Shown here: in pieces, positions 1,532 to 8,500 of the stretch | Position numbering within the stretch: the first letter of the stretch is position 1 | Layout of the letters: each line of letters opens with the position of its first letter | Origin: Tsuneonella troitsensis | Lineage (GTDB): Bacteria > Pseudomonadota > Alphaproteobacteria > Sphingomonadales > Sphingomonadaceae | Length of the DNA: 64,000 nt | Assembly: GCF_001441535.1 (NCBI RefSeq) | Contig: NZ_LMAU01000002.1 | Location: 558,001-622,000 of the forward strand | Direction of reading: 5' to 3' | The notes under the pieces: generated by a model | What the model was told of the DNA's origin: nothing | Database searches by the model: none | The model's input: the letters and a program-made list of their open reading frames with translations, nothing else | Position numbers and translations under genes: made by a program

Positions 1532-2110
1532 ATGGCTCGCACCTTCGCTTACTGCCGCGTCAGCACTGCCGATCAGACAAACGATAACCAGCTTCGCGAG
1601 ATCGAGGCCGCTGGCTTCACCGTCGATCACAAGCGGTCAATCACGGAAACAGTCTCTGGCTCCACTGCCGCTATGCAGCGCCCGGGTTTCGCGCGCCTAG
1701 TTGACCGACTGGAGGACGGAGACGTTCTCGTAGTCACTAAGCTGGACCGGCTTGGCCGCAACGCGATGGACGTTCGGTCGACGGTGGAGCGGCTCGCTTC
1801 CGACGGGGTGCGGGTCCACTGCCTCGCTCTGGGGGGTATCGACCTCACCAGCCCAGCGGGCAAAATGACTATGGGCGTCATCTGCGCTGTGGCAGAGTTC
1901 GAACGCGACCTGTTGATTGAGCGGACCCAAGCGGGTCTATCCCGAGCGAAGGCCGAAGGAACAGCGCTGGGCCGTCCCCCAGTGCTTACGAACGAGCAAC
2001 AGGCCGAAGTGCTGGCGAAGCGGGCCGAAGGTGTGTCCCTTGGTGCACTTGCGAAGACGTACGGAGTGAGCCGCGCTGCTATTCAGCGGGTGGAGAAGCG
2101 GGCCGCGTGA
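1532..2110 (+). CDS. Serine site-specific recombinase, resolvase/invertase family
   Basis: This 192-residue protein has the small serine recombinase layout. The N-terminal catalytic domain contains YCRVSTADQ with the nucleophile Ser11 and Arg9, then the KLDRLGRN motif around residues 70-77, then the helix with the ERT(Q/K) signature, and a C-terminal helix-turn-helix (VSLGALAKTYGVSRAAIQRV) that binds the crossover site. A strong AGGAGG at 1522-1527 fixes the ATG at 1532. It resolves or inverts DNA between paired sites; candidate sites lie just upstream. It converges with the RT gene, and the two coding ends overlap by 32 bp, which suggests that the pair was juxtaposed by transfer. Confidence 0.9.
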   Translation: MARTFAYCRVSTADQTNDNQLREIEAAGFTVDHKRSITETVSGSTAAMQRPGFARLVDRLEDGDVLVVTKLDRLGRNAMDVRSTVERLASDGVRVHCLALGGIDLTSPAGKMTMGVICAVAEFERDLLIERTQAGLSRAKAEGTALGRPPVLTNEQQAEVLAKRAEGVSLGALAKTYGVSRAAIQRVEKRAA

Positions 2111-3370
2111 GTTCAGGCTTGCGCTCGCTTCGCCCTGCTTTTTTCGGAAGGATCGTATCTCTCTCGATACCGATAAAATCGAACTGCTTCGCCGAGAGGT
2201 TCGCTAATCGATCTCGCCCGAATAGCTCACGCAATATCGAGGCTTGGGCAACCGTGGCAGCCTGCTTCAATGCAGTTTTCAGGTCGTCGCAGTTGCGAGC
2301 TTCCGCATACGCGTGGATATATCCATTCACGATTGATTGGAAGTATTGCCCCATCCCTGTGAGGCGGACCTTTTTCTCCTGTAGATAGTCCAGGTCGCCA
2401 GCGACCCTCACGCGGTTTACGCAATCGCCGATGCAGTTGGCAGAGACACGTAACTGGTGTTTTCCTATGGGCGACCTGCTGATCTCCATCCCAAGAAATG
2501 GAGCGGGTTCACCGGGCAGGATAATGGCTGTCTTCGACCCGGCTGCGTTTGGCGCTCCGAGGGCAAGACCTATCTCACCTAGTGCATCGGAGATCCGTTC
2601 ATGAAAATCGAGTGCAGCCGCCTCTGAATCGAAAAATGCGACGATATCGTCTACGTAGCGAACAATCGGGACCTTCGTCTTCACCATCGCTCGGTCGAAA
2701 TCGCGGAGGTATGCCCCTGCGAACAGCGGAGATAGCGGCATCCCCTGTCGAACTCCTATCCCCCTACGGATGCCGCTCGCGCTCACGATCGAGCGCCAGT
2801 TCCTGTCGAAACCTTCCGAAATCTCCGTCTGCAAGAACGCGTTGAGATAGGGTAACAGCGACGGCTGACGAACAACCCGCCCCAGACACCGAGACAACTC
2901 CTCCCGCCGAATGTTGTCGAAGAACTGCTGGATGTCCGTCTTGTAGACATACGGGTGCTCGTCTCGAGCATTACAAGCGAACCTACGTGCGCCCTGAACC
3001 CCGCGAGCGGCTCCCTCGGCGATTCCGAAGGACACAGGATTGTCGAGGCCCATTGGGCGTAGCTTGTCCTTCAGCGTCCGCAGGAGCGCGAACTGTATAA
3101 GACGGTCGGACATCGTCGGGACGCAAATGATACGGTATTTTTCAGAGTCTGGCTTCTTCTTCGCGACGGCCAGCAACCCGTCACTCTTGAAACGGCCTCG
3201 CTCTCCAAAAAGACGGGAGCGTATTTCTCGTATCTCGCGCTTACGGTTCGCTTCGAACTTGTCAGCAGAGACCCTATCTACACCGAAGCAAGAGCGACGC
3301 AGCTTCTTGAGTTTTCAACCCAAACCACGGACAGATTTTCAGCCGAAACAGCGCGTTCGAATGCGTTCAT
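2079..3370 (-). CDS. Reverse transcriptase, frame broken near the N-terminus
   Basis: The intact part (2079-3176, 365 aa from a TTG) has the RT core: TDIQQFFDN with Asp81, RQGMPLSP at 143-150, YVDD at 174-177 and LGMEISR. Upstream in the same frame the protein continues (GVDRVSADKFEANRKREI, then LFGERGRFKSDG) like the N-terminus of group II-like and defence RTs, but a TGA at 3315-3317 blocks it. The other frame supplies a good start at 3370 (MNAFERAVSAENLSVVWVE) and joins this one exactly if the run of four A at 3312-3315 had five. There is no maturase X or HNH domain, and the motif ends in SP rather than the SQ of diversity-generating RTs. It is either an orphan or anti-phage RT, or a pseudogene. 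Confidence 0.8.
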
Positions 3371-3395
3371 AGCTACCGCCGGCTCCCCATGGAAA

Positions 3396-4100
3396 TTACC
3401 ACACCGGCGGCACGTAGGAGGGCCAAGCAACCCGCACCGGGAAGCTGGCTTTCGCCCTGGAGCCGAGGCCGTTGCCGCCCGCCTGAACGACGATGCGGGC
3501 ACCGATCTCGACGCGAACGGGCAATCCAATCGAGTAGACCGGAAGGCCGCCTGCCAAGGCTATACACGCAACCAACCCGAACAGCCAGCGGAACAAACCG
3601 TGAACAGGTTCGTTTCCGCCGCCGCTTGGGCGATTGGGCGCGGCGGACGCATTGCTCGCCTCGCGAGGCCGCCCCGCGATCCCAGCTCCCCGAAGATTGT
3701 CCGGTGCCCTGTTGGGGCGTTGGATAATACAGAGCACTGACTTCTCCTTTTCACCAGCTGAGGGCCAAGCAACCCGCACCGGGAAGCTGGCTTTCGCCCT
3801 GGAGCCGAGGCCGTTGCCGCCCGCCTGAACGACGATGCGGGCACCGATCTCGAAGGAAACCGTCAAAACACCTTCGGGAAGCGAGGCCGAAAGGATCTCG
3901 CTGCCACCTGTATCTATACAGGAATCCAGCCAAGGTGGGAAGCAAGGCCCATAGCTCGTGGGCACTGCGTTGGGGAAAACGAAGCGCGGAAACTTGGCGG
4001 GCGATTTCGCGTGGAAGCCATAGTGGCTGTCGCAGACTAGGAGGACCTCGCAATCGGACCCCACATATGGACCCCACAGAGGAGCCCATCCGACTGGCAA
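3396..4100 (-). CDS. Hypothetical protein with two identical in-frame repeats, upstream of the RT
   Basis: This 234-residue open frame starts at a TTG and ends 25 bases before the RT start, on the same strand. The 94-bp direct repeat lies in frame (342 bp = 114 codons apart), so EIGARIVVQAGGNGLGSRAK appears twice. A hydrophobic stretch (LFRWLFGLVACIALAGGL) before the second copy could span the membrane. No family is recognised, the start codon is weak, and competing frames exist on both strands, so it may be a degraded or chimeric gene. Confidence 0.35.
   Translation of the reverse strand: MPVGWAPLWGPYVGSDCEVLLVCDSHYGFHAKSPAKFPRFVFPNAVPTSYGPCFPPWLDSCIDTGGSEILSASLPEGVLTVSFEIGARIVVQAGGNGLGSRAKASFPVRVAWPSAGEKEKSVLCIIQRPNRAPDNLRGAGIAGRPREASNASAAPNRPSGGGNEPVHGLFRWLFGLVACIALAGGLPVYSIGLPVRVEIGARIVVQAGGNGLGSRAKASFPVRVAWPSYVPPVW
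3418..3511. repeat. 94-bp direct repeat, copy 1
   Basis: Base-for-base identical to 3760-3853, at an offset of 342 bp. It lies inside the ORF upstream of the RT and keeps its frame. Complete identity suggests a recent duplication or ongoing gene conversion. Confidence 0.9.
3760..3853. repeat. 94-bp direct repeat, copy 2
   Basis: Identical to 3418-3511. The 248 bp between the copies encode a proline/arginine/serine-rich segment and a possible membrane helix. Recombination between the copies would delete 342 bp and preserve the reading frame. Confidence 0.9.
4056..4078. repeat. Tandem GGACCCCACA pair near the tRNA junction
   Basis: GGACCCCACA occurs at 4056-4065 and again at 4069-4078, a 13-bp period, about 50 bp from the 3' end of tRNA-Gln. 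Short direct repeats in this position resemble arm-type sites of integrative elements. The match is by eye and the role is inferred. Confidence 0.35.
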
Positions 4101-4251: not shown

Positions 4252-5232
4252 CTAGCCCGCAATCCGATCGAGTCGCGCGCGGACGGCTTCGGCCTGCGCC
4301 ATGATGTTGGCGACAAGCTCCTTGCAGGTCGGGATGTCGTGGACCAGCGCCTGGCTCTGGCCGCTCGACCAGATGCCGCCATCCATGTCGCCCTTGGCAT
4401 AGACGAGCTCGCGGCCGCGCGCGCCGGCCATCAGGTGCTTGACCTCGTCAAAGGTCGTGCTCGGGTTGCGCTGGATCGCGGCGACTTCTTCCGACACCGC
4501 ATTACGCGCCACCCGCGCGGTGTTGCGGAACGGGCGGCCGACCAGCACCGTATCGAGTTCGCTGTTCTCGACGATCTGCTTCTTCACGTTGGGGTGGATC
4601 GCGGCCTCCTGCGTCGCGCAGAACCGCGTGCCCATGTTGACGGCATCGGCACCAAGCGCGAGCGCGGCGACGAGGCTGCGCCCGTCGGCCATCCCGCCGC
4701 TCGCAACGATCGGCACGTCCGGCAAGGCATCGACCGTCGCGGGCAGCAGTACCACCAGGCCCACGTCATCCTCGCCCGGGTGGCCGGCACATTCGAAACC
4801 GTCGATCGAGATGACGTCCACACCCTTGCGCACCGCGCTTTCGGAGTGCCGCACGCTGGTGCACTTGTGGATGACCTTGACGCCGGCTTCCTTGAACGCA
4901 GGCAAATGATCGGTCGGTGCGCGTCCGGCGGTTTCCACGATCTTGAGCCCGCTTTCGATGATCGCCTCGCGGTATTCGTCGTAGGGGATCGGGTTGATCG
5001 AGGGCAGCAGCGTCAGGTTCACGCCGAACGGCTTGCTGGTCAGCGATCGGACCTTGTCGATCTCTTCCTTCAGCGCCGCGCCGCTGGGAAACATGTGCGC
5101 GGTGATAAAGCCGAGCGCGCCCGCCTCCGCGACGGCGGCCACGAGTTCGCCATAGCCCACCCCCGTCATCCCGCCCATGAGGATCGGAGTTTCGACCTCG
5201 AACATCTCTGTGATCCGCGTCTTGAATGCCAT
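4252..5232 (-). CDS. Nitronate monooxygenase (2-nitropropane dioxygenase family)
   Basis: This 326-residue flavin TIM-barrel enzyme oxidises alkyl nitronates such as propionate 3-nitronate; related proteins are also annotated as enoyl reductase-like. Visible motifs are LMGGMTGVGYGELVAAV near the N-terminus, ECAGHPG at 147-153, ASGGMADG at 177-184 and GTRF at 201-204, which hold FMN. There is no signal peptide, so it is cytosolic. It is transcribed alone, and a 16-bp palindrome 21-36 bp upstream of its ATG matches one in front of the acyl-CoA dehydrogenase operon at 42.6 kb. This suggests shared control and a role tied to acyl-CoA catabolism. Confidence 0.88.
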   Translation of the reverse strand: MAFKTRITEMFEVETPILMGGMTGVGYGELVAAVAEAGALGFITAHMFPSGAALKEEIDKVRSLTSKPFGVNLTLLPSINPIPYDEYREAIIESGLKIVETAGRAPTDHLPAFKEAGVKVIHKCTSVRHSESAVRKGVDVISIDGFECAGHPGEDDVGLVVLLPATVDALPDVPIVASGGMADGRSLVAALALGADAVNMGTRFCATQEAAIHPNVKKQIVENSELDTVLVGRPFRNTARVARNAVSEEVAAIQRNPSTTFDEVKHLMAGARGRELVYAKGDMDGGIWSSGQSQALVHDIPTCKELVANIMAQAEAVRARLDRIAG

Positions 5233-5252
5233 GTCGCCGCTCTCCCGCTTAC

Positions 5253-5268
5253 TTTACGTTTGCGTCAA
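5253..5268. promoter_or_regulatory. Candidate LiuR-like operator of nitronate monooxygenase
   Basis: TTTACGTTTGCGTCAA lies 21-36 bp upstream of the start codon. It resembles the TTnACGTnnACGTnAA palindrome known for the MerR-family regulator LiuR, which controls branched-chain amino-acid and acyl-CoA catabolism. The same core in the opposite orientation occurs at 42636-42651. Confidence 0.5.
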
Positions 5269-5510
5269 CCTGCCGCGCGTGCCGCAAGCTGGCAAGCGAA
5301 ATGCACATGCTCTAGATCGGGCGCGCATTCGGAGAATTCAGGGGGATTTGAACGAGGAGGATTTTGCGGAAATTGCGGCTAACCCGGATACCGCCGAACG
5401 AAGAGTATATTTTTTCGGGAAACTGCGCCATTCGGACGGATGTTTGGACCAGCGCCCGGCAACAGACAAGCCCGCGAATTTACGGTCGATCTTCCGGCTG
5501 GGTTACGACG

Positions 5511-5540
5511 CGGCAGTGCCCGATCCCGCAGGCACTGCCG
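5511..5540 (-). terminator. Hairpin downstream of the amidohydrolase gene
   Basis: CGGCAGTGCC at 5511-5520 pairs perfectly with 5531-5540 over a 10-base loop, about 22 bases past the stop codon at 5562. There is no T-run, so it may be a rho-assisted end or an RNA-stabilising hairpin rather than a classical terminator. Confidence 0.4.
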
Positions 5541-5561
5541 TTAGTCGATTCGCGGTCGCTA

Positions 5562-8500
5562 TCAGTGCCGATGCGCCGGTTCGCTGGGTTTTCCAGCAGC
5601 CCAATCGCTGCTTCCCTCCCACCAGTATGGCGCGCGGCGGCGATCGCCGGTCACCTGTTCGTTCAACGTCGCCGCATCGTAGAGCCGCCCGCCGAGCATC
5701 ACGCGCGACACCTTTTCGGTGTTGCGAATATTCTCGAGCGGATTGGCGTCTAGAACGACCAGATCGGCAAGCTTCCCGGCTTCCAGAGTTCCGAGATCGC
5801 GGGCCATGCCAAGCGTCTTGGCAGGCATGAACGTCGCGGCCTGCAAGGCCTGCAACGGCGTCCATCCACCCTTCACGAAGCTCCACATTTCCCAGTGAGC
5901 GCCGATGCCATCCTGCTGGCCATGCGCGCCGATATTCACCTGGATACCGCGATCGGCCAGCTTGCGCGCCTCGCGTGCCGCCCACGTATCGGCGTAGTCA
6001 TCTTCGGGCGCAATTTCGCGCCGAGCGCCTGCTGCTGCCAGCGTGCCCGGGGGAATGTGCGCCATGAGCAACGGGTGTTCCCACAGGTTCGTACGGGCTC
6101 GCCAATAGGGGTCGGCACCGGGCCCGCCATAAGCCACCACGAGCGTCGGCGTGTAGTTCACCCCCGTCTGCGACCAGAACTGCAGGACATCCTTATAGAA
6201 GACGCTTCCGGGGACGTTGTGTTCGACCGTGGCATTTCCGTCCTGGATCAGGCTCATGTCCATGTTGAACAGCGATCCGCCCTCCGGAACGACCAGCATG
6301 TTTTCCGCCTGGGCGGCGCTGACGACCATCTGGCGCTGCTCGCGCCGCGGCTGGTTGTAGTTCTTCACGCTCATCGCGCCCTGCGCCTTCAGACGGCGGA
6401 CGTGGGCCAGCGCGTCGTCGAGCTTGCCGATCTCGGCGAAGCGGCCTGCAGCCTTGGCGCCATAGACGATCTCGCCGGTCGAGAAGATGCGCGGCGCAAG
6501 GATCAGTCCGGCTCGCTGCATTTCGCTCGCGGCGAATATCTCGATCGCGCTGCTGGACGGATCGTGGATCGTGGTCGTGCCCAGCGCGAGATTGGCCATC
6601 GCCGACCAATTCTGCTGCGGCACCAGGCCGTTCACGCCTTGCGGTCCGTGCGCGTGCGCGTCGATGAACCCGGGAACGATCGTCTTTCCGCTGAGGTCGA
6701 CGGCGGGCACGCCTGCAGGGACAACGACGTCTGCTCGCGGTCCGACTGCGGTGATGCGATCTCCGCTCACGAGGATGACGCCGTCCTCGATGATCCCGCC
6801 ATCTTCACCGCGCATCGTGACAATCCTCGCGCCGGTCAACGCGACTGTCCCCGCCGTGTGGTCCGCGCGCACCGTCCGGGACAGGTCGAGGCCGGCATCC
6901 GGATACTTGTATTCGCCGTTGAAAAGGCTCCCGGTGTCGGCGCTGTAAAGGACCGGCCCGATGCTCCAGTGCGCGCGGCGCCCGCCGTCAGAGAAATGGA
7001 TGAAGTCGCCGCCGCCCTGGCTGAGGCGGACAGCGGGCAGCGCGCCCTTGTCGGTCGCCGCGGTTACGTCCTGCGAACCGGGCAGCAGCGGCATCAGGTG
7101 CGCTTCGTAGTTCTGCCGGAAAGCGACGTACTGACCGTCCGGCGAGACCTCGAAACCGCTCGTCAGGTCGCCCGAGGCATGGGTACGCCGGGCTTCTCCG
7201 GAGAGATCGGTGCTGAACAGCTGCAACTTGTCACCCGACCGGCCGCTCATGAACACCCTGTCGGAACTTGCGCCGAACTGCGGATTACCACCGCCGCGCT
7301 CGACCAGCTGTGGTTTGCCGCCGCCCGAGGGGACCATGTAGGTGCCCCCTTCGCGGTTCCAGCGATCGGCGGTGAGCCCGCCTCCCGATCCCGCCTCGAA
7401 CACGATGATCTTGCCATCGGGGGACAGGCGCGGACTGGAATAATGCCCCGGTTCGGTCGTTACCGGGCGCGCCGTGCCGCCGCTGGCGGGCACCGTCATG
7501 ACCCGGCCCAGTTCCTGGTCGGTCCAATCGACGAACACGATCGAGTTTCCGTCGCGAGACCAGCTGGGCCAGGCTTCGAACCGATCGGCGGCCGTGCGGG
7601 TAAGCCGCCGGGGCTCTCCACCGTTGGCCGACTTGACCCACAGCTTGCCCAGCGATTCGAACACGACCTGGCGCCCGTCGGGAGAGACCTGGGCCCACCG
7701 CACCATCTTGGTCTGGAAGGTGTCGCGCGCGACCTCGATTTCCGGATGAAGCGATTGCGCGACAGTGCGGTCGTCCGCGATCGAGAACGGAATGTCGCGC
7801 GCCTCTCCGCCGCGTACCGGGACTCGCCGGATCTTTCCGCCGCTCCACAGCACGATCTCGTTGCTGTCCGCGGTCCAGTCCATGTTCGGATAGACGCCCG
7901 TGACGGCCCACGTCTCCTGCATGTCCTGGTCGGGCAGGTCCATCAGCTTGCGTTCGTTGCCGCTCGCCAGATCGCGCACATACAGCTTGGACTTGGCCCG
8001 CTCGCGGCGAACGAAAGCCAGGTATTTCCCGTCAGGTGAAGGATTGGGCCGCACCGCGCCGCCGTTCCCGCCGGTCACGCGGCGCGTCTCGCCCGTCTCC
8101 AGTTCGTAGCGCTCGATCGCGAACAGGCCGCGATTGGAATCCTGGGCATACTGGAACGTTGCGCCCGGCGTGATGTCGCGGCTGAAATAAATGTGCTTGC
8201 CATCGGGCGCGAAGGTCGGCTCGCCCAGTTCCTTCTGGTGCCGTTCGTCCACGCGCTTGATCAGCTGGACGCCGCTGCCCCCGTCGACATGATATAGCCA
8301 CACCTCGCCGGTCCCCAGCGACCTGGCGGTGGTGAAATGCTTCTTCGCCACGATGTAGCGGCCGTCGGGGCTCCAGCTAGGCTGGTTGAGGAGGCGGAAG
8401 TCTTCCTTCGTCAGCTGCTTCCTGTCCGAGCCATCGGCGCGCATGATCCAGATATTGTCGCCGCCGCCCCGGTCCGAAACGAATGCGATCCGGGTGCCGT

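What the first reader, a model, noticed from the sequence alone, without database searches (positions are those of the whole stretch)
2079..3370. Orphan reverse transcriptase with a one-base frame break at a run of A
The RT core (YVDD, QGMPLSP) is intact, but the N-terminal part that group II-like and defence RTs carry is split over two frames. The upstream frame begins with a plausible start (MNAFERAVSAENLS), and adding one A to the four-A run at 3312-3315 joins it to the rest without loss. This could be a recent mutation, an assembly error, or a slippage site that controls RT level. It sits in an island next to a recombinase and lacks maturase and diversity-generating RT features, so an anti-phage role is possible.
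Basis: partly seen in the sequence, partly recalled or inferred. Interest (0 to 1): 0.75.

Follow-up and report, generated by a model that had tools for sequence, protein, structure and literature searches.

The report
Reverse transcriptase with repeat-flanked endless-gene template
A bacterial reverse transcriptase sits behind a short stretch of DNA bounded by two copies of the same sequence, whose reading frame never stops when the stretch is repeated end to end, which suggests that the enzyme may copy it into a long repetitive gene for a membrane protein, possibly against phages.

Summary
The frame break is real; eight sphingomonad relatives are intact, so slippage control is unlikely. The important part lies upstream and was missed: two direct repeats (R1 3866-3760, R2 3524-3418; 94-bp identical core) around a 235-bp insert, then a hairpin. 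The same layout precedes the RT in 29 loci of this family: repeats 54-171 bp, units 291-441 bp. In 29 of 29 the unit length is divisible by three; in 28 of 29 one sense frame is stop-free round the whole unit; in 29 of 29 that frame is the most hydrophobic sense frame. None of 190 background windows and none of 15 control RT loci has such repeats. Eight more loci keep one repeat without the insert, like a solo LTR. Best reading: the RT copies a terminally redundant RNA, jumps from R1 to R2 and makes a concatemer encoding a never-ending membrane protein. It would work like DRT2 neo, with a group II-like RT and another device. No RNA, cDNA or phenotype was measured, and the window's own RT frame is broken.

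The parts
2079..3314 (-). RT core frame, 411 aa stop to stop (group II-like RT, YVDD)
3278..3370 (-). N-terminal RT piece in another frame (ATG at 3370), frame-broken in this copy
3376..3410 (-). hairpin between R2 and the RT start (arms CCGCCGGT and GCCGGCGG); the stop of the repeat ORF (3398-3396) lies in its loop
   Evidence: sequence; pair counts on 9 sphingomonad sequences
3418..3524 (-). direct repeat R2 (107 bp, 95.3% to R1; last 94 bp identical)
3525..3759 (-). insert between the repeats, encoding a hydrophobic segment (19-residue hydropathy peak 2.02)
3760..3866 (-). direct repeat R1 (unit R1 + insert = 342 bp = 114 codons)
3396..3737 (-). ORF of the genomic copy: GTG 3737-3735, hydrophobic segment, R2, stop 3398-3396; 113 aa
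3744..3749 (-). Shine-Dalgarno-like AAGGAG, 6 nt before the GTG
1532..2110 (+). serine recombinase, convergent neighbour; found near the RT in 5 of 42 loci, so not counted as part of the system

Best explanation
A two-part locus: a template RNA with long terminal direct repeats (R1-insert-R2, then a hairpin) and a group II-like RT encoded just downstream. The RT would copy the RNA starting at the R2 side. On reaching R1 the end of the nascent cDNA, complementary to R, would pair again with R2 and copying would go on, as in strand transfer between retroviral R regions (recalled). The product would be a concatemer (R-insert)n. Made double-stranded and transcribed, it would encode a stop-less ORF, because the unit is a multiple of three and one frame is open all round; most units bring their own start site and each a hydrophobic segment. 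The long repetitive membrane protein would harm the cell, most likely on phage infection. Shown here: layout, conservation, divisibility by three, the open hydrophobic frame, start sites in 22 of 29 loci, the hairpin in sphingomonads, single-R loci. Inferred: that the sense RNA is the template, the jump, the concatemer, its expression, toxicity and phage trigger. In the window genome the RT frame is broken while the unit is intact, so this copy may be silent.
For: 29 of 29 units divisible by three, 28 of 29 open all round in one sense frame, 29 of 29 with that frame the most hydrophobic of the three sense frames; the idea was noted and 23 of the 29 loci were fetched afterwards. 13 RT clusters at 50% identity. 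In AT-rich units 0-3 of 500 shuffles have any open frame. The leader after R1 is stop-free (0 of 304 codons) while the same frame past R2 stops within 26 codons in 22 of 22 loci examined. 0 of 190 background windows and 0 of 15 control RT loci have such repeats. Single-R loci 8, with the left flank of R1 in 6. Hairpin pairs 97.2% formed, slid controls at most 65.6%. No constant protein partner among crude neighbour ORFs of 42 loci.
Against: No RNA, cDNA, protein or phenotype was measured. Codon-position counts show little third-position excess. In GC-rich units an open frame is not rare by chance (up to 142 of 500 shuffles), and antisense frames are open in 4 units. L043 has a stop in its unit and L045 a stop in R2. 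A. soli and window RTs are frame-broken. Seven of 29 loci have no start site that I named after R1, and some named sites rest on four bases. Promoter scans are at chance. Only 6 of 19 post-R2 regions fold more than 2 SD below shuffles. The G2L4-like locus L024 has the repeats but a unit of 376 bp, not a multiple of three. L041 and L006 lack the repeats. Unlike DRT2, all R-insert and insert-R junctions already exist in the genome.
Confidence: 0.58

Rival explanations
1. An ordinary membrane-protein gene with a duplicated segment, translated from inside or upstream of R1 in the genomic copy and kept uniform by gene conversion. Its translation opens the hairpin and so controls the RT, or it is only a neighbour.
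For: R1-insert-R2 is open in the genomic copy; in the window the frame is open 81 codons upstream of R1; the ORF stop lies in the hairpin loop before the RT start.
Against: In L033, L048, L061 and L022 the frame closes at the left edge of R1, and few R1 copies have an in-frame start with a Shine-Dalgarno-like site, while most have one after R1. A gene that starts in the insert puts no demand on the frame of R1. It does not explain near-identical DNA of the two repeats.
Confidence: 0.2
2. DNA-level recombination: RecA or a recombinase uses R1 and R2 to delete or circularise the unit, and the circle or an expanded array is what is expressed; the RT is secondary.
For: Single-R loci look like R1-R2 recombination products; a serine recombinase is near in 5 of 42 loci.
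Against: The RT is constant by the way loci were collected, but the upstream DNA was found strongly only in the same 3 of 298 genomes as the RT; the recombinase is not constant; only one repeat pair was reported upstream of the RT in each family locus, no expanded arrays.
Confidence: 0.08
3. The RNA itself is circularised or read repeatedly, and the repeats serve RNA folding; the RT makes a different product.
For: The hairpin with compensatory changes shows selection on sense RNA.
Against: No circularising RNA found by Rfam in the window; the RT would have no role in the open frame.
Confidence: 0.07
4. The first reader's slippage site controlling RT level, without any special template.
For: Two RT frames overlap in the window.
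Against: The eight sphingomonad relatives are intact; the other broken copy, L021, breaks elsewhere.
Confidence: 0.03

Closest known systems
DRT2 (RT + ncRNA, neo)
   Same: Reading proposed here: template unit divisible by three, open all round, hydrophobic bias, poorly conserved protein (PMC12039810 and PMC11100668, passages)
   Different: RT scores 32 bits for Drt2 against a cut-off of 390; fold TMq 0.48; template bounded by 54-171 bp direct repeats, not short ACA motifs; unit 291-441 against 111-129 nt; ORF in RT sense, neo antisense to its ncRNA; junctions pre-exist in the genome
DRT10 / UG17
   Same: Second-best PADLOC model (104 bits); repeat synthesis on an ncRNA (PMC12632851, outline and passages)
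   Different: A real UG17 scores 439 bits; DRT10 ncRNA is 137 nt with 9-nt repeat product and a SLATT partner; no constant partner seen here
G2L4 RT
   Same: Best PDB relative by sequence profile, TMq 0.60-0.66; one G2L4-like locus, L024, has 132-bp direct repeats upstream
   Different: Window RT has YVDD, not YIDD; G2L4 is described as a repair RT; PMC12337344 has no hit for direct repeat (term search); L024 unit is 376 bp and not open
Group II intron RT
   Same: Fold (GsI-IIC TMq 0.63-0.67) and NCBIfam group_II_RT_mat match of 106 bits
   Different: Below that model's cut-off of 300; no intron RNA in the window; no maturase domain found by Pfam
Retroviral / LTR terminal repeats (recalled)
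   Same: Terminal redundancy that would allow R-to-R strand transfer; single-repeat deletion products
   Different: No integrase or transposition seen; the insert holds a short membrane ORF; the RT lies outside the repeats

Membership tests
DRT2 | RT belongs to the Drt2 family | tested here: not met
   NCBIfam NF041746 32 bits, cut-off 390
DRT2 | template length divisible by three and stop-free in one frame | tested here: met
   29 of 29 and 28 of 29
DRT2 | template of about 111-129 nt bounded by ACA motifs | tested here: not met
   units 291-441 bp bounded by long direct repeats; ACA motifs not searched
DRT2 | phage-triggered concatemeric cDNA and toxic Neo | not testable with these tools
   needs cells
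DRT10 / UG17 | UG17 RT | tested here: not met
   104 bits against 439 for a real UG17; no curated cut-off in PADLOC output
DRT10 / UG17 | adjacent SLATT gene | tested here: inconclusive
   no constant neighbour cluster in 42 loci; neighbours were not scanned for SLATT
G2L4 | YIDD in place of YADD | tested here: not met
   YVDD; YIDD as feature from PMC4244168 (passages)
Mobile group II intron | intron RNA domains around the RT | tested here: not met
   Rfam gathering search of the window: two tRNAs only
Mobile group II intron | maturase domain | tested here: not met
   Pfam: RVT_1 only; group_II_RT_mat 106 of 300 bits
Diversity-generating retroelement | template and variable repeats that differ at adenines | tested here: not met
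   R1 and R2 are identical in many loci, other differences not adenine-specific by eye
Retron | retron-type RT and msr-msd RNA | tested here: not met
   no Rfam match; retron St85 model 43 bits, cut-off 235

The most novel reading that the evidence does not exclude
A second, independent invention of genes written by a reverse transcriptase: a group II-like RT lineage that builds a never-ending membrane-protein gene from an RNA with long terminal direct repeats, by retrovirus-like R-to-R strand transfer, leaving single-R scars where the system is lost. The direct-repeat template may extend to some G2L4-like RTs, now regarded as repair enzymes.
Probability: 0.5. Interest if true: 0.95.

Novelty: new variant of a known kind. 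Interest (0 to 1): 0.85.

Why it matters
DRT2 showed that bacteria can assemble a gene by reverse transcription. If this reading is right, the trick arose again in another RT lineage, with a device like the terminal repeats of retroviruses and a product with a membrane segment. It gives a simple genomic search rule (RT preceded by long direct repeats, unit a multiple of three, open all round) and a simple test: RT-dependent insert-R-insert DNA, which does not exist in the genome.

Tried and rejected
Slippage control of the RT: rejected, relatives intact. Group II intron, retron, DGR, DRT2 and UG17 membership: rejected on scores or anatomy. Assembly artefact: rejected, the layout is in records titled complete (plasmids L007, L020, L021, L022; chromosome L061). 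Constant protein partner: none seen in crude ORFs of 42 loci; most neighbour clusters were judged by eye, not by library. tRNA as a regular insertion site: tRNAs in 5 of 30 loci. Promoter scans of two loci: chance. More G2L4 relatives: none at E 1e-40 in 299 genomes (where an empty answer shows little), only L024 itself in plasmids, none in viral contigs. Prevalence: with profile A6 only the own genome of 398 from the phylum. Viral contigs: none with the single protein, three with alignment A2, one at a contig end and two distant. E. coli: no match with one Acinetobacter query. Pfam on four repeat ORFs: no match above a curated cut-off. Own errors: one search took rows of an alignment file for eight loci and printed blanks for six, repeated. 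In the tree (quick method) seven UG17-profile loci (L074, L075, L080-L084) were translated on the wrong strand; two of them were dropped by the program; I use the tree only for the place of the window among sphingomonads. The 442 of L057 and 381 of L022 were BLAST edge effects; L057 ran at the wrong length. Notes say 41 loci for neighbours; the right number is 42.

Full report
Observation. The window holds an RT on the minus strand (2079-3314, 411 aa stop to stop). The N-terminal piece from the ATG at 3370 is in another frame. Searched apart, the two pieces match the two parts of one protein in L027. L027 and the seven other sphingomonad loci L028-L034 have open RT frames of 399-454 codons. 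The break is therefore a feature of this copy, by mutation or sequencing error. A. soli L021 has a break of its own near residue 86.

What was missed. Of 298 genomes of the family, three carry the RT: the window's own, G086 and G085. The same three are the only strong matches of the upstream 501 bp, at 100, 94 and 71% identity; twelve others gave short weak matches (24-44 bp, E 5e-5 or worse). This DNA holds two direct repeats: 107 bp at 95.3% with a 94-bp identical core in the window. In the core the two copies of one genome agree better with each other than with those of the other genomes.

Family. Acinetobacter plasmids and a P. aeruginosa replicon gave the same picture. At I noted that spacings were mostly multiples of three and one frame open. 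A scan of one genome for each of 84,980 species with alignment A2 then gave 44 loci. Of these 25 have the repeats, 8 have one R only, 1 (L041) has none found, 4 (L035, L038, L046, L063) end at a contig edge, and 6 (L065-L070) are distant relatives. Of the 25, 23 were new to the idea; L027 and L028 are the earlier genomes. With the window, L007, L021 and L022 the family set is 29. Left out: L020 (same layout as L007), L026 (partial RT match, repeats on the other side), L006 (no repeats upstream), L024 (G2L4-like, kept apart). Near-copies remain inside the 29 (for example L043/L052, L047/L049). By organism names (classes recalled) the set spans alpha-, beta- and gammaproteobacteria.

Tests. Repeats are 54-171 bp (the 54 of L036 is cut by the contig end) and 92.7-100% identical. 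In 29 of 29 the unit (291-441 bp) is divisible by three; in 28 of 29 one sense frame has no stop round the unit, the exception being L043 with one; in 29 of 29 this frame has the highest 19-residue hydropathy peak of the three sense frames, 1.47-3.03. The RTs of 28 of these (L049 was not clustered) form 13 clusters at 50% and 20 at 70% identity. Thirteen independent units would all be multiples of three by chance about once in 1.6 million. The frame is the one with fewest stops, so one search compared each unit with 500 mononucleotide shuffles, any of six frames: 0-3 in the AT-rich units, up to 142 in GC-rich ones. The evidence for the open frame thus comes mostly from AT-rich genomes. Antisense frames are also open in four units. 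L045 has a stop in R2 but not in R1.

Start sites. In 22 loci I named a start codon after R1 with a Shine-Dalgarno-like sequence, some of four bases only; seven were left out (L042, L043, L044, L045, L047, L049, L052). The leader from R1 to the start has no in-frame stop in 304 codons, against 10 and 30 in the other frames; being part of the open unit this is not independent of it. Past R2 the same frame ends within 26 codons in all 22. In L033, L048, L061 and L022 the frame closes at the left edge of R1; L036 has no DNA left of R1. A gene starting in the insert would put no demand on the frame of R1; a concatemer does.

Selection. Codon-position counts in 16 pairs (not independent) show little third-position excess. 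The protein is kept open and hydrophobic rather than conserved in sequence, as described for Neo (PMC12039810, passages).

RNA. After R2 a hairpin precedes the RT start. In nine sphingomonad sequences its 8 pairs are 97.2% formed (1 of 500 shuffles as high), two pairs change on both sides (73 of 500 as high), and slid controls give at most 65.6%. Four cells are G-U pairs on the sense strand, which would be mismatches on the other, so sense RNA is favoured. Stems of other sequence can be drawn at this place in other loci, but in only 6 of 19 sequences is the energy more than two standard deviations below shuffles. Promoter-like sites are at chance in the two loci scanned.

Loss. In eight loci a single R remains upstream of the RT (about 2 kb upstream in L058) and no repeat pair is found. 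In six, DNA left of R matches the left flank of R1 in a relative, as expected of R1-R2 recombination; L037 and L040 show no such match. With the broken RTs of the window and L021 this hints that keeping the whole system is costly.

Controls. None of 190 windows of 1,330 bp away from the RT and none of 15 other RT loci has a qualifying repeat. The 15 are 11 from the UG17-profile search, two presumed group II-type (L023, L025, not scanned), one UG4 (L066) and one retron (L001); four had under 700 bp upstream and are weaker controls.

Protein. PADLOC gives a generic RT model first (128 bits) and UG17 second (104); a real UG17 scores 439. The UG4 match in the tally is the distant member L066. AlphaFold2 of intact L027 with 29 rows: mean pLDDT 91.5. 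Foldseek: GsI-IIC TMq 0.63-0.67, G2L4 0.60-0.66, DRT2 0.48. One GsI-IIC entry in that list, 7k9y, is a template-switching complex, which suits the jump proposed here.

Neighbours. Of 430 crude ORFs around 42 loci, eight clusters occur in four or more loci: three are the repeat ORFs themselves, one is a serine recombinase (5 loci), the other four look general or mobile by eye. The system seems to be RT plus template alone.

Literature. Seven searches listed no paper that by title or abstract describes an RT with a direct-repeat-flanked template. Seen beyond listings: outline and passages of PMC12632851; passages of PMC8934634, PMC12337344, PMC4244168, PMC12039810 and PMC11100668; part 1 of 2 of PMC13213688, whose table of DRT1-9 names only DRT2 as gene-making. 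Subscription journals are mostly not held, so a description elsewhere is possible.

Conclusion. The layout and its frame are very unlikely to be chance. That the RT makes a concatemer is an inference from the frame of R1 and by analogy with DRT2; I put it at 0.58.

Noticed in passing
L024 (P. aeruginosa NZ_CP131792.1): repeats 4326-4457 and 4702-4833, RT 4902-6149: A G2L4-like RT (YIDD) also has two identical 132-bp direct repeats upstream, unit 376 bp, not a multiple of three and not open. G2L4 is studied as a repair RT; a template RNA may have been overlooked.
   Followed up: partly
L042, L043/L052, L044, L045, L007: R1 and R2 differ by 2-5 nt at about the same place, some 35-55 nt into R, while the rest is nearly identical. 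A site with different roles in R1 and R2 is possible; unexplained.
   Followed up: no
L065, L068, L072; L037, L067: Distant relatives L065 and L068 have direct repeats flanking the whole RT (spacing 1761 and 1683), L072 one at 540; L037 and L067 have a downstream inverted copy of an upstream stretch.
   Followed up: no
L001 (G000:C4:273352-276966), 1387-2991: The window's genome has a second RT, fused to a trypsin-like protease: PADLOC RT-Protease_XI, 471 bits, a type XI retron.
   Followed up: yes
L021 4829-6053 (Acinetobacter soli plasmid): An independent RT frame break near residue 86 in a locus with intact repeats.
   Followed up: partly
L049 (MAG labelled Heimdallarchaeota): Template region nearly identical to Acinetobacter L047, so probably contamination of the MAG.
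   Followed up: no
L006 9954-10269 (Acetobacter plasmid): A perfect tandem array of 50-bp period downstream of the RT, in the gene annotated DNA damage-inducible protein.
   Followed up: no
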